Shown here piece after piece: positions 1-63,039 of a stretch of DNA of 64,000 nt; within the stretch, counting starts at the first letter, position 1, and each line of letters opens with the position of its first letter. The stretch is from Mycobacteriales bacterium (GTDB lineage: Bacteria; Actinomycetota; Actinomycetes; JAFAQI01). The stretch spans positions 1-64,000 of the forward strand of contig DATJSI010000037.1 of NCBI GenBank assembly GCA_035504215.1. The letters run 5' to 3'. The notes under the pieces are model-generated. The model searched no databases. It saw only the letters and a list, made by a program, of their open reading frames with translations, and was not told the DNA's origin. A program made the position numbers and the translations under genes.

Positions 1-448
1 CGACACCTATGGGCCATGCGTGTCGCCCAAGCAACCCTTATGGGCCATACGTGTCGCCCTGGCAACCCCTCTGGGCCATGCGTGTCGCCCTGCGCAATCC
101 CCATGGGCCATGCGTGTCGCCCAGGAAACCCCCAGGGGCCATACGTGTGCCGCTGCGCGACACCTATGGGCCATGCGTGGCGCCCTGGCAACCCCTATGG
201 GCCATGCGTGTGGCGCGGCGCGACACCTATGGGCCATGCGTGTCGCCCTGGCAACCCCTATGGGCCATGCGTGTGGCGCGGCCCGACACCCATGGGCCAT
301 GCGTCGCGCCCAGGAAACCCCCATGGGCCATACGTGTGGCGCTGTGCGGCACCTATGGGCCATGCGTGTCGCCCTGGCAACCCCTATGGGCCATGCGTGT
401 GGCGCGGCGCGGCACCTATGGGCCATGCGTGTGGCCGCACGCGAGGTC
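1..448. repeat. Phased tandem repeat array, about 31.5-bp period
   Basis: Fourteen copies of the core GGGCCAT begin at 11, 42, 73, 105, 136, 168, 199, 231, 262, 294, 325, 357, 388 and 420. Spacing is 31 or 32 bp and mostly alternates. The usual unit is ATGGGCCATGCGTG plus a 17- or 18-bp linker of two alternating kinds, so the dimer is 63 bp. Copies 4-8 match copies 10-14 at an offset of exactly 189 bp, which shows a higher-order repeat of six units. The array begins inside a linker at base 1 and so continues to the left. All three forward frames are open because 63 and 189 are multiples of three; I do not regard any of them as coding. The same core recurs near 56800 and 62950. Confidence 0.93.
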
Positions 449-464
449 CGATTCCCGCGGGAAC

Positions 465-3204
<2,740 letters not shown>

Positions 3205-10842: not shown

Positions 10843-11418
10843 TCAAGGACGCGCGGGTGAAGATCGCGCATCCAACCGCGTGGGCAACCCGTCGATGCTC
10901 TCGGCGTTCCGCTCCGCCCGGTAGTCGGCGATCGCCTGGTCGTCCTTGCGCTCTGCCCACCGCTCGAGCAGGTCGCGGTCCTCGACGTAGTCCATGCGAG
11001 GTACCGCGAAACCGCACGAGTCACTCACGCGGGTCACATCGACCACAATGATCGCGCGGGCGCCCCGGCGCGCCGGGAACCGCGCGGCCAGCTGCTCCCA
11101 CTCCGGATCGGCCGGCTGCACCGCCCTCCCGCTGCCGTGCAGCCGGACGATCTGCGGCGGCCCGTCGAACGCGCAGAGCATGACGACCACCCGGCCGTTC
11201 TCGCGCAGGTGCGCGATCGTCTCGGCCCCGCTGCCGGTGAGGTCGAGCCAGGCCACCGTGTGCTGGTCGAGCACGGCGAGCGAGCCACGCCCGCCCCGCG
11301 GCGAGACGTTGATGTGTCCATCCGCAGCCAGCGGCGCGGTCGCGACGAAGAACACCGGCTGCTGCTCGATCCAGGCGCGCAGCCGCGGCTCGATCCCGTC
11401 GGGGTGAACCTTGCTCAT
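10843..11418 (-). CDS. Pyridoxamine 5'-phosphate oxidase family protein
   Basis: This 191-residue protein has the split-barrel flavin-binding fold of the PNPOx-like family. Features include an N-terminal strand pair (PVFFVATAPLAADGHINVSPRGG), the following strand TVAWLDLTGSGAETIAHLRENGRVVVML and a conserved late region near FAVPRMDYVEDRDLLERWAERK. Related proteins bind FMN, F420 or heme, so cofactor and substrate are uncertain. It begins immediately after ilvD on the same strand through an unusual stop-start chain and is likely cotranscribed with ilvD. Its 3' end lies 33 bp before the ilvB leader peptide. Confidence 0.82.
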   Translation of the reverse strand: MSKVHPDGIEPRLRAWIEQQPVFFVATAPLAADGHINVSPRGGRGSLAVLDQHTVAWLDLTGSGAETIAHLRENGRVVVMLCAFDGPPQIVRLHGSGRAVQPADPEWEQLAARFPARRGARAIIVVDVTRVSDSCGFAVPRMDYVEDRDLLERWAERKDDQAIADYRAERNAESIDGLPTRLDARSSPARP

Positions 11419-11482
11419 CCGAACACCACGCTCATCCGAACACCACGCTCATCCGAACCCCGCGCTCATCCGCACACCGCGC
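11415..11482 (-). repeat. Four 17-bp direct repeats carrying stop-start overlaps
   Basis: Units start at 11415, 11432, 11449 and 11466 (plus-strand form TCATCCGAACACCACGC with minor changes). On the coding strand each contains GGATGAGC, so ATG and TGA overlap in each unit. The first TGA is the stop of ilvD, and the last ATG is the start of the PNPOx-like gene. Between them lie three 6-residue frames (MSAGFG, MSVVFG, MSVVFG), each ending in the ATGA that starts the next. Confidence 0.9.
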
Positions 11483-46192: not shown

Positions 46193-46262
46193 GCCGCGAG
46201 CGTAACGACCCCCGTCGCCCACCCCTCTTCGTGATCTTGACCACCGAACGCCAGAGCGTGCG

Positions 46263-46302
46263 GGGGTGTGCGTGCGGGGTGTGCGTGCAGGGGTGTGCGT
46301 GC
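46263..46302. repeat. Three 13-bp direct repeats
   Basis: GGGGTGTGCGTGC occurs at 46263-46275 and 46276-46288, and again at 46290-46302 after one extra base. A degenerate fourth copy follows. The repeats lie in the 124-bp gap between the thioredoxin-TPR gene and the enoyl-CoA hydratase gene, 71 bp upstream of the latter. Confidence 0.8.
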
Positions 46303-46316
46303 GGCGGTGTTGCGGG

Positions 46317-55171: not shown

Positions 55172-55231
55172 GGCTCGCACGATAGTGGCTCGCACGATAG
55201 TGGCTCGCGCGATCGTGGCTCGCGCGATGGT
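55172..55231 (-). repeat. Four 15-bp direct repeats upstream of the hydrolase gene
   Basis: Units begin at 55172, 55187, 55202 and 55217 (plus-strand form GGCTCGCACGATAGT with changes). On the hydrolase strand the two proximal units each contain TATCGT, a good -10 hexamer, so the promoter box is duplicated in tandem. The two distal units have lost it by single changes. Confidence 0.85.
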
Positions 55232-56875: not shown

Positions 56876-57634
56876 CTACTCGGCGGCGGTGTCGGCGGTC
56901 TCGGCGGCGGTGTCGGCGATCTCGGCGGCGGTGTCGGCGGACTCGGCGGCGGTGTCGGCGATCTCGGCCGTCCCGACGACCTCAGCGCGGCCGGCGACCT
57001 CGGCGGGTTCGTCCGGCGACACCCGCATCCCGCAGAGCAGGCTCACGATCAGCTCGCCGATCTCCGCCTTCGCCGCCACCGGGTCATCGGCCTCGGCGAG
57101 ATACAGGCAGGCCTCGCTCAGCGCGCCGATCAGCATGAGGGCGAGCGGCCGCAGCGGCTCGCGCCTGATCACCCCGGCGTGCATCGCCTTGCGCAGCGCG
57201 CCGCGCAGCGCAACGGTGCTGAACCTGGTCTCGATCAGCCGCGCGGTCTCCCAGCCGAGCACGACCCGGGCGTCGATCAGCACGATCTGGCGGACCGCCG
57301 GATCGGCGTGCGCCTCGACCCACAGCCGGCAACCGACCACCAGCGCGTCCCACGAGTCGGGCTGAAGGAACTCGATCACGGCTTGGTCCGAGACCTCTTG
57401 CTGGACCTGCTCGAAGACCGCGCGGAAGAGCCGCTCCTTGTCCGCGAAGTGGTGGTAGAGCGCGCCCTTGGTCACCCCTGCGCGCTCGACGATCTCCTCG
57501 GTCGACGTGGCCGCGTACCCCTGCGCGCCGAACATCTCCCGGGCGGCCGTGATCAGGGCCTCCCGGGTGCCCAGTCCCTGCGCGACCCGCTTATCTTTCG
57601 ATGTGGGCTTGACTTCCATACCAGCGGTATGCAT
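56876..57634 (-). CDS. TetR-family regulator with heptad-repeat tail
   Basis: This 252-residue regulator has a TetR DNA-binding domain (about 20-70: ALITAAREMFGAQGYAATSTEEIVERAGVTKGALYHHFADKERLF) and the usual helical ligand domain to about residue 205. It ends in an Ala/Glu-rich tail of seven-residue repeats (ADTAAEI, ADTAAES, ADTAAEI, ADTAAET), which could form an extra helix or coiled coil and is not typical of the family. It is divergent from the DUF4242-OsmC pair, and two matching palindromes lie between, so autoregulation and repression of that pair are likely. ATG 57634 has AGGAG three bases away; ATG 57619 lies inside the first palindrome. Confidence 0.9.
   Translation of the reverse strand: MHTAGMEVKPTSKDKRVAQGLGTREALITAAREMFGAQGYAATSTEEIVERAGVTKGALYHHFADKERLFRAVFEQVQQEVSDQAVIEFLQPDSWDALVVGCRLWVEAHADPAVRQIVLIDARVVLGWETARLIETRFSTVALRGALRKAMHAGVIRREPLRPLALMLIGALSEACLYLAEADDPVAAKAEIGELIVSLLCGMRVSPDEPAEVAGRAEVVGTAEIADTAAESADTAAEIADTAAETADTAAE
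56880..56963. repeat. 21-bp coding tandem repeat in the TetR gene
   Basis: Four units begin at 56880, 56901, 56922 and 56943. Each is TCGGCGGCGGTGTCGGCG plus three variable bases and encodes one heptad of the regulator tail. The repeat stays in frame because its length is a multiple of three. It lies only 30 bp from the phased array. Confidence 0.9.
57617..57631. promoter_or_regulatory. TetR operator 1
   Basis: CATACC (57617-57622) and GGTATG (57626-57631) are perfect arms around AGC. The site covers the second possible start codon of the TetR gene. It matches operator 2 in arm sequence and three-base spacing. Confidence 0.75.
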
Positions 57635-62681: not shown

Positions 62682-63039
62682 CTCCTGGATCGTGTTGGCG
62701 CGATTAACAGTCGGCTACGACGCCATCAGGGCCCTCGCGTAGGACTTTCGCAGCGATTCCTCGCGCACTGCTTGGCAAGTGATGCCATAACGGAGCGGGT
62801 GCCACCTCCGCTCGGTGGGGTTCTCCGAGAAATCTCACCGCAATGGTGGATCGGGCCGGGGCACTCGCACCGTGGACTGGCTGCGCCGGGCTGAGTCGGG
62901 CGGACAGCTGCGACAGAGACCAGCCCCACCAATGGGCCATGCGTGGGACTCCAGCCCCACCAATGGGCCATGCGATCTCGTGGTTGCCTGTCGGATGTGT
63001 CGACGTGGAGGATCAAGCTGTTGCGGGAGGTGGTGCGCA
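62682..63039. other. Intergenic region holding array locus 3
   Basis: This 358-bp gap separates the MBL gene from the cyclase gene. It contains the third phased array (62926-62975). Short open frames cross it, but none has a ribosome site and family features. A GGGAGG ribosome site for the next gene lies at 63025-63030. Confidence 0.6.
62926..62975. repeat. Phased ATGGGCCAT repeat array, locus 3
   Basis: ATGGGCCATGCG occurs at 62932 and 62963, 31 bp apart, each preceded by CAGCCCCACCA. The linker (GGACTCCAGCCCCACCA) is a close variant of the locus 2 linker read on the other strand. The locus has only two cores. Confidence 0.88.

What the first reader, a model, noticed from the sequence alone, without database searches (positions are those of the whole stretch)
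1..448. Repeat array with helical phasing and three levels of periodicity
Fourteen cores are spaced 31,31,32,31,32,31,32,31,32,31,32,31,32 bp. The mean is 31.5 bp, three turns of 10.5-bp DNA, so every core faces the same side of the helix. Two linker types alternate (63-bp dimer), and a six-unit pattern recurs at exactly 189 bp. A neutral minisatellite need not hold helical phase while the linkers diverge. A protein-binding or DNA-bending array (nucleoid organisation, segregation, boundary) is a reasonable idea; expansion of a 63-bp duplication is the alternative.
Basis: partly seen in the sequence, partly recalled or inferred. Interest (0 to 1): 0.85.

Follow-up and report, generated by a model that had tools for sequence, protein, structure and literature searches.

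The report
Palindrome array tied to a nuclease
The repeat array is one of about 36 copies in this genome of a family of short DNA palindromes set about three helix turns apart, and such palindromes bracket genes for one family of predicted DNA-cutting proteins across the actinobacteria, which points to a little-known kind of self-spreading DNA element.

Summary
In detail: 14 imperfect palindromes (CACNNATGG-S-CCATNNGTG) lie 31/32 bp apart, with two alternating linkers. The array is cut by a contig end and probably continues to ~23 units between leuB and eamA. It is one of ~36 arrays (2-15 units) in this genome, mostly just after stop codons; relatives lack it at leuB-eamA. The palindromes also bracket a gene whose product looks like an AbiEi-type DNA-binding domain fused to a Vsr/I-Bth0305I-like homing-nuclease domain. 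Across Actinomycetes, 30 of 34 homologs have matching repeats on both sides (top 5% of control genes). Different branches carry different palindromes, again ~30-32 bp apart, and the two other palindromes searched are also dispersed. At one locus (glpD) relatives show an empty site, a full element (three palindrome types, two orientations) or a solo array. Best reading: a REP/RAYT-like mobile palindrome family with an unrelated cognate nuclease, not a nucleoid or boundary array. The ~3-turn spacing of neighbouring palindromes is real and recurs in unrelated families; strict 10.5-bp phase along whole arrays does not (mean 30.2 bp in one family, 32 in another). Cutting and mobilisation by the nuclease are inferred, not shown.

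The parts
1..435 (+). Tandem array of 14 palindromic cores; core centres at 13, 44, 75, 107, 138, 170, 201, 233, 264, 296, 327, 359, 390 and 422; alternating 12-bp (TCGCCCTGGCAA-like) and 13-bp (TGGCGCGGCGCGA-like) linkers; truncated at base 1 by the contig end
   Evidence: continuation in contig C146 (30-base identical overlap)
482..487 (+). TAGTTT, a possible -10 element of eamA left outside the array; the leuB side likewise keeps a TANNNT just outside the array
   Evidence: sequence reading; comparison with G004, where both genes lie close together without an array; inference
495..1409 (+). eamA, EamA-family transporter (PF00892, 3.9e-35, scanned on 465-1409); GTG 495 preferred as start over ATG 465 from the G004 alignment. 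The array lies between it and divergent leuB on contig C146
56766..56846 (-). Second array of the same family, 3 units at 31 bp, in an intergenic gap
62927..62976 (+). Third array of the same family, 2 units at 31 bp, in an intergenic gap

Best explanation
The array is an expanded, gene-less copy of a mobile palindrome family. The unit is a 19-bp imperfect palindrome followed by a 12/13-bp, often palindromic, linker; the smallest working form appears to be a pair of palindromes ~31 bp (three helix turns) apart that can fold into one hairpin. The cognate gene is bracketed by such arrays and is predicted to encode an AbiEi-like DNA-binding domain plus a Vsr/I-Bth0305I-like nuclease domain. Shown here: genome-wide dispersal, bracketing of the gene, different palindromes with different protein branches, empty/full/solo states at one orthologous locus. 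Inferred: the AbiEi-like domain binds palindrome pairs on one face of the helix, the nuclease nicks or cuts there, and break repair copies the palindromes (with or without the gene) to new sites, usually just after stop codons where damage is least; arrays then lengthen by tandem duplication, here as a 63-bp dimer and 189-bp hexamer. Solo arrays could also arise by recombination between the arrays flanking the gene. Any effect on host genes (hairpins in 3' UTRs, separation of the leuB/eamA promoters) is a by-product.
For: Dispersed family: ~36 arrays, nearly all of 2 or more units, spacing 30-33. The four closest homologs of the nuclease (one clade, support 100/98) all have cores on both sides within about 130 bp; G004 has only three core matches (1 mismatch or fewer) and two of them bracket this gene. 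30 of 34 homologs exceed the 95th percentile of 259 control genes for up/down flank similarity, 16 exceed the 99th. TCCACA box upstream in 26/34 homologs against 16/471 control genes. Dispersed copies of two other palindromes: AGCAATGNNNCATTGCT 101 in G001, 25 in G002, 0 in G000; TGAGGGTGCCCCTCA 82+64 in G039, 0-2 elsewhere; both about 30-31 bp apart. glpD locus: empty in G001, G003, G009, G010, G011; full in G000, G007 (opposite orientation, other palindrome) and G005 (third palindrome); solo array in G008, solo palindrome in G006. Array absent between leuB and eamA in G001 and G004. Model pLDDT 92; Foldseek hits AbiEi 6y8q (1e-5) and I-Bth0305I 3r3p (TM 0.72 by target); PADLOC AbiEi in 14/14. 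Out-of-sample: Rhodococcus ruber plasmid gene WP_029540190.1 bracketed by the same design, about 30 bp.
Against: No activity is shown, and no target-site duplication or exact insertion junction was defined. G008 has many arrays of this family but no homolog of the matching clade, and G005 has clade-B palindromes without a clade-B gene found (MAG 68% complete); these would be orphans or missing data. The nuclease domain is supported mainly by structure (3r3p E = 0.015; DUF559 E = 0.22). Unit-level compensatory changes do not exceed shuffles, so hairpin selection within genomes is not demonstrated. Some homologs (G052:C193, G137, G002:C184) show no flanking repeats above control, although G137 and G002:C184 have the TCCACA box. 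The flank test was made after seeing the first cases.
Confidence: 0.72

Rival explanations
1. Host-beneficial hairpins: the arrays are bidirectional transcription terminators or 3'-UTR stabilisers that the host keeps and reuses; the nuclease association is secondary.
For: 23/36 (G000), 9/11 (G001) and 9/16 (G008) arrays lie within 50 bp of a stop codon; fold z-scores average about -4 on both strands; hairpin clusters after stop codons are proposed terminators in high-GC bacteria (PMC8355165).
Against: Few shared positions between genera; empty sites at glpD and leuB-eamA; a minority, including the window array, lie between divergent genes; it does not explain why palindromes bracket one gene family. 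REPs show the same 3'-end bias (PMC3733652).
Confidence: 0.15
2. Regulatory or architectural sites: the AbiEi-like protein is a DNA-binding regulator or nucleoid protein and the arrays are its operators or boundary sites, phased for cooperative binding.
For: AbiEi-like N-terminal domain, palindromes ~3 turns apart in several unrelated families, upstream copies could be an autoregulatory operator.
Against: Palindromes also lie downstream of the gene; positions turn over between genera; copy number ranges from 0 to over 100 among relatives; a nuclease-like domain is conserved; long arrays do not keep 10.5-bp phase in G039.
Confidence: 0.08
3. Ordinary minisatellite: a 31-bp duplication expanded to a 63-bp dimer and 189-bp hexamer with no machinery.
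For: 63- and 189-bp periods in this array; long arrays carry their own linker subtypes, so local tandem duplication did contribute.
Against: The same cores are dispersed in ~36 arrays with differing linkers, cores are more conserved than linkers, and the same architecture brackets homologous genes in other families.
Confidence: 0.04

Closest known systems
REP/BIME/REPIN palindromes with RAYT (TnpA-REP) transposases
   Same: Dispersed extragenic palindromes, often as inverted pairs and clusters, mostly 3' of genes; cognate gene bracketed by the palindromes; palindrome type tracks the protein branch (PMC2817692, PMC3116915, PMC3733652).
   Different: No Y1/HUH protein (PF01797) in five genomes of the family that were searched; the bracketed gene encodes an unrelated AbiEi-like plus Vsr-like protein; units at a tight 30-32 bp instead of the 71-110 bp most common in P. 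fluorescens REPINs; no GTAG/CGTC tag seen in the units of this family.
Free-standing homing endonucleases of the Vsr/EDxHD type (I-Bth0305I)
   Same: Predicted C-terminal domain matches the I-Bth0305I catalytic domain, TM 0.72 by target length; the gene behaves as a mobile unit at orthologous sites.
   Different: I-Bth0305I is a phage-intron enzyme (from memory); here the gene is bracketed by palindromes, empty sites lack the palindrome, and most copies are gene-less arrays.
AbiE type IV toxin-antitoxin systems (AbiEi antitoxin)
   Same: N-terminal fold and sequence profile of AbiEi; AbiEi is reported to bind inverted repeats in its own promoter (from memory).
   Different: No adjacent AbiEii toxin gene seen at G000:C50, where the neighbours are glpD and an anti-sigma-like gene on either side of the arrays; extra nuclease-like domain; repeats also downstream and genome-wide.
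MITEs and solo LTR-like remnants
   Same: Non-coding copies with inverted ends; a solo array stands in G008 where G000 has array-gene-array in direct repeat.
   Different: No DDE transposase or LTR seen in association; no target duplication identified.

Membership tests
REP/RAYT (REPIN) system | Y1 (HUH) tyrosine transposase of the RAYT/IS200 family in the genome | tested here: not met
   PF01797 absent from G000, G001, G002, G004, G008 while the control rings in E. coli and four others
REP/RAYT (REPIN) system | Dispersed extragenic palindromes, mainly in pairs or clusters | tested here: met
   ~36 arrays, nearly all of 2 or more units, intergenic
REP/RAYT (REPIN) system | Cognate gene bracketed by the palindromes | tested here: met
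   Met, but by an unrelated protein family
REP/RAYT (REPIN) system | GTAG or CGTC tag at one end of the REP | tested here: not met
   Units listed have no such fixed tag; judged by inspection for this palindrome family only
Homing endonuclease gene | Nuclease domain of a homing family | tested here: met
   Foldseek 3r3p I-Bth0305I, TMt 0.70-0.72, E 0.015-0.018; D226, E237, H244, R256 conserved in at least 85% of homologs. A structural prediction, not an activity
Homing endonuclease gene | Empty allele contains the intact target that the gene interrupts | tested here: inconclusive
   glpD empty sites carry no palindrome; G008 solo array could be an uninterrupted target or a remnant
Homing endonuclease gene | Sequence-specific cleavage | not testable with these tools
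   needs purified protein
AbiE type IV toxin-antitoxin | AbiEi antitoxin domain | tested here: met
   PADLOC AbiEi in 14/14 members; Foldseek 6y8q
AbiE type IV toxin-antitoxin | Adjacent AbiEii nucleotidyltransferase toxin gene | tested here: not met
   At G000:C50 arrays, glpD and an anti-sigma-like gene flank the ORF; neighbours of other homologs not systematically scanned
CRISPR array | Unique spacers between identical repeats, with cas genes | tested here: not met
   Linkers are themselves repeated in two types and shared between arrays; cas genes not sought
Nucleoid or segregation site array (parS-like) | Conserved chromosomal position across relatives | tested here: not met
   Absent between leuB and eamA in G001 and G004; few shared positions

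The most novel reading that the evidence does not exclude
A separate class of bacterial mobile element: an AbiEi-like DNA-binding domain fused to a Vsr-like nuclease recognises pairs of palindromes three helix turns apart, copies them round actinobacterial genomes by cut-and-repair, and changes palindrome sequence as the protein diverges. It would be a convergent counterpart of REP/RAYT with no HUH or DDE transposase.
Probability: 0.5. Interest if true: 0.93.

Novelty: new variant of a known kind. Interest (0 to 1): 0.85.

Why it matters
Dispersed palindromes in bacteria are usually explained through RAYT transposases; genomes without RAYTs leave their repeats unexplained. This finding gives such repeats in actinobacteria a candidate enzyme, links an otherwise uncharacterised AbiEi-plus-Vsr-like protein family to a concrete DNA target, and supplies defined substrates (palindrome pairs at 30-32 bp) that make binding, cutting and mobility directly testable. 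It would also explain long arrays that break assemblies and hairpins at many gene ends in these genomes.

Tried and rejected
RAYT (PF01797): absent in five genomes. Rfam: no match in the window. RNA structure under selection: strong folding, but covariation between units no better than shuffles, so not claimed. Viral contigs: no match to the two-unit pattern; phages: no homolog of the protein; plasmids: no match to the array and one distant protein homolog. A first spacing pattern was mis-specified (gap too short) and found almost nothing; ignored. Pfam and NCBIfam gave no name for the nuclease proteins adjoining arrays, only weak AbiEi_4 and DUF559 hits among relatives. Literature searches (open-access library only) found no report of DUF559/AbiEi proteins with flanking palindromes. 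The 11-mer control was inflated because controls came from the same loci; replaced by the gene-based control.

Full report
1. The observation. The window starts at base 1 of contig C37 of a 3.47-Mb, 150-contig actinobacterial genome, G000. The core occurs 24 times in the window against 1.3 expected. The last 30 bases of contig C146 equal the first 30 of the window, so the array probably continues to ~23 cores; this is an inference from the overlap. On C146 the next gene is leuB on the minus strand; on the window side it is eamA, whose start is best put at GTG 495 by comparison with G004. The array therefore sits between two divergent genes, with a TANNNT box left outside it on each side (sequence reading).

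2. A genome-wide family. About 36 arrays of 2-15 units occur in the stretches fetched, and nearly every core belongs to an array. Adjacent spacings: 30 (3), 31 (74), 32 (31), 33 (5), with few others. The unit is an imperfect palindrome, CACNNATGG-S-CCATNNGTG, plus a 12/13-bp linker that is often palindromic itself (GGGCTATAGCCC, TCGCTATAGCGA). Short arrays tend to begin with CACGCATGGC and end with GCCATGCGTG, so a pair can form one long hairpin (reading). Core positions carry 1.47 bits and linker positions 0.88. Folding is far stronger than in shuffles, mean z about -4 on either strand, but changes between paired positions are not compensatory above shuffles, so I do not claim selection for RNA structure.

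3. Where the arrays are. 23 of 36 lie within 50 bp of a stop codon (9 of 11 in G001, 9 of 16 in G008). Gene calls come from a simple codon-usage caller. Few array positions are shared between genera. Between leuB and eamA, relatives G001 and G004 have no array. Relatives carry the same design with changed cores: centre TSA in G008 and G004, GCA in G001. No RAYT (Y1) transposase was found in five of these genomes.

4. A gene bracketed by the palindromes. Among genes next to arrays, one ~310-aa family recurred. Its four closest members (G000:C50, G000:C95, G001:C14, G004:C47; one clade, support 100/98) all have cores on both sides. In G004 only three places in the genome match the core within one mismatch, and two of them bracket this gene. 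In G000:C50 the two flanking arrays are direct copies of each other; the G000:C95 copy has lost its C-terminal domain at the array.

5. The protein. AlphaFold gives mean pLDDT 92.4, pTM 0.85. Foldseek against the PDB gives AbiEi antitoxin 6y8q (1.3e-5), Rv2827c 1zel, and the catalytic domain of the homing endonuclease I-Bth0305I, 3r3p (E 0.015, TM 0.70-0.72 by target length). PADLOC AbiEi profiles match all 14 members. Pfam gives only one member AbiEi_4 (1.3e-4) and a weak DUF559 (0.22). D226, E237, H244 and R256 are conserved in at least 85% of 34 homologs. A nuclease with an AbiEi-like DNA-binding domain is therefore a prediction, not a demonstration.

6. The tie is general. The protein was found in 23 of 148 Actinomycetes genomes at E of 1e-30 or better. 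In 30 of 34 homologs the upstream and downstream 310-bp flanks are more alike than in 95% of 259 control genes, and in 16 more than in 99%. The repeats differ between branches: CCAGCGGTGTGCCACTGCTGG in G007, CAGCAACGCTGCGTTGCTG in G004:C22, AGCAATGNNNCATTGCT in G001:C72 and G002:C75, TGAGGGTGCCCCTCA in G039. Tandem spacing of 30-32 bp was detected in the flanks of 10 of 33 homologs against 7 of 199 control genes. A TCCACA box lies upstream in 26 of 34 homologs against 16 of 471 control genes; its role is unknown. Caveat: the flank test was designed after the first cases were seen, and the homologs are related to one another. An out-of-sample check, a Rhodococcus ruber plasmid gene (33% identity), shows the same bracket: two ~54-bp hairpins holding ATGTSACAT palindromes about 30 bp apart, and TCCACA boxes.

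7. Two other palindromes are also dispersed. AGCAATGNNNCATTGCT has 101 forward matches in G001, 25 in G002, 11 in G008, 8 in G005, 5 in G004 and none in G000; reversed-pattern controls give 0-1. TGAGGGTGCCCCTCA has 82+64 matches in G039 and 0-2 in nine other genomes. Both sit in arrays at 30-31 bp; G001 also has 51/52 bp. Copy number broadly follows the presence of the matching protein branch; G008 (branch A) and G005 (branch B) are exceptions.

8. One locus shows the states. 3' of glpD, five relatives are empty (G001, G003, G009, G010, G011). G000 has array-gene-array; G007 has the gene in the opposite orientation with another palindrome; G005 has it with a third palindrome. G008 has a solo three-unit array, G006 a solo palindrome like that flanking its own homolog at C217, and G004 what looks like a decayed remnant. 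G002 has other sequence there. This is what a mobile unit and its remnants would leave.

9. Spacing and helical phase. Others drift: C95 3.0 bp, C36 5.0; the 14.5 bp for C57 is inflated by a spurious terminal match. G039 arrays step by 30.0-30.4 bp and drift 7.5-12.5 bp. So a near-integral number of turns between neighbours is conserved, while long-range phase is not. The likeliest reason is that a palindrome pair is the unit recognised; this is inference.

10. Mechanism. Shown: dispersal, bracketing, branch-specific palindromes, turnover at orthologous sites. Inferred: the AbiEi-like domain binds palindrome pairs, the nuclease domain nicks or cuts, repair copies the element, and tandem duplication lengthens arrays. 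Effects on host expression are open.

11. Relation to known systems. It works like REP/RAYT (PMC2817692, PMC3116915, PMC3733652), but the defining Y1 transposase is absent, so it is not filed there. It is not shown to be a homing endonuclease, and it lacks the AbiEii partner at the one locus examined. Searches of an open-access library found no description of this association; subscription literature was not searched.

Noticed in passing
homologs of the nuclease, 75-150 bp upstream of the ORF: A TCCACA box resembling a DnaA box (often NTCCACAG) lies just inside the upstream palindrome in 26 of 34 homologs, in several as two copies about 29-30 bp apart. Role unknown.
   Followed up: partly
L147, upstream of leuB in G001: eamA is reduced to a fragment there, and next to it is a different long inverted repeat (CAAGTTGTCAGCGTC ... 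GACGCTGACAACTTG) with GTGCTATAGCCCC in its centre, like the linkers of the array family.
   Followed up: no
G001 clade-B arrays, e.g. L249, L252, L254: Palindromes are spaced 30/31 and 51/52 bp, near three and five helix turns, with a half-palindrome (GTGATGTGACCG) in the longer gap.
   Followed up: partly
G001 arrays L107, L111, L113: The stop codon of the upstream gene (TAG in CTAGGCC or CTAGCC) coincides with the linker half of the repeat, as if the element supplied the stop.
   Followed up: no
L199 (G000:C104) and L171 (G008:C143): Another branch of the same protein family carries short flanking repeats sharing GCTCTAGC; no dispersal search was made for it.
   Followed up: no
window 11413-11482, 46256-46310, 55172-55228, 56879-56968: Unrelated short tandem repeats (17, 14/27, 15 and 21 bp units) reported by TRF.
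   Followed up: no
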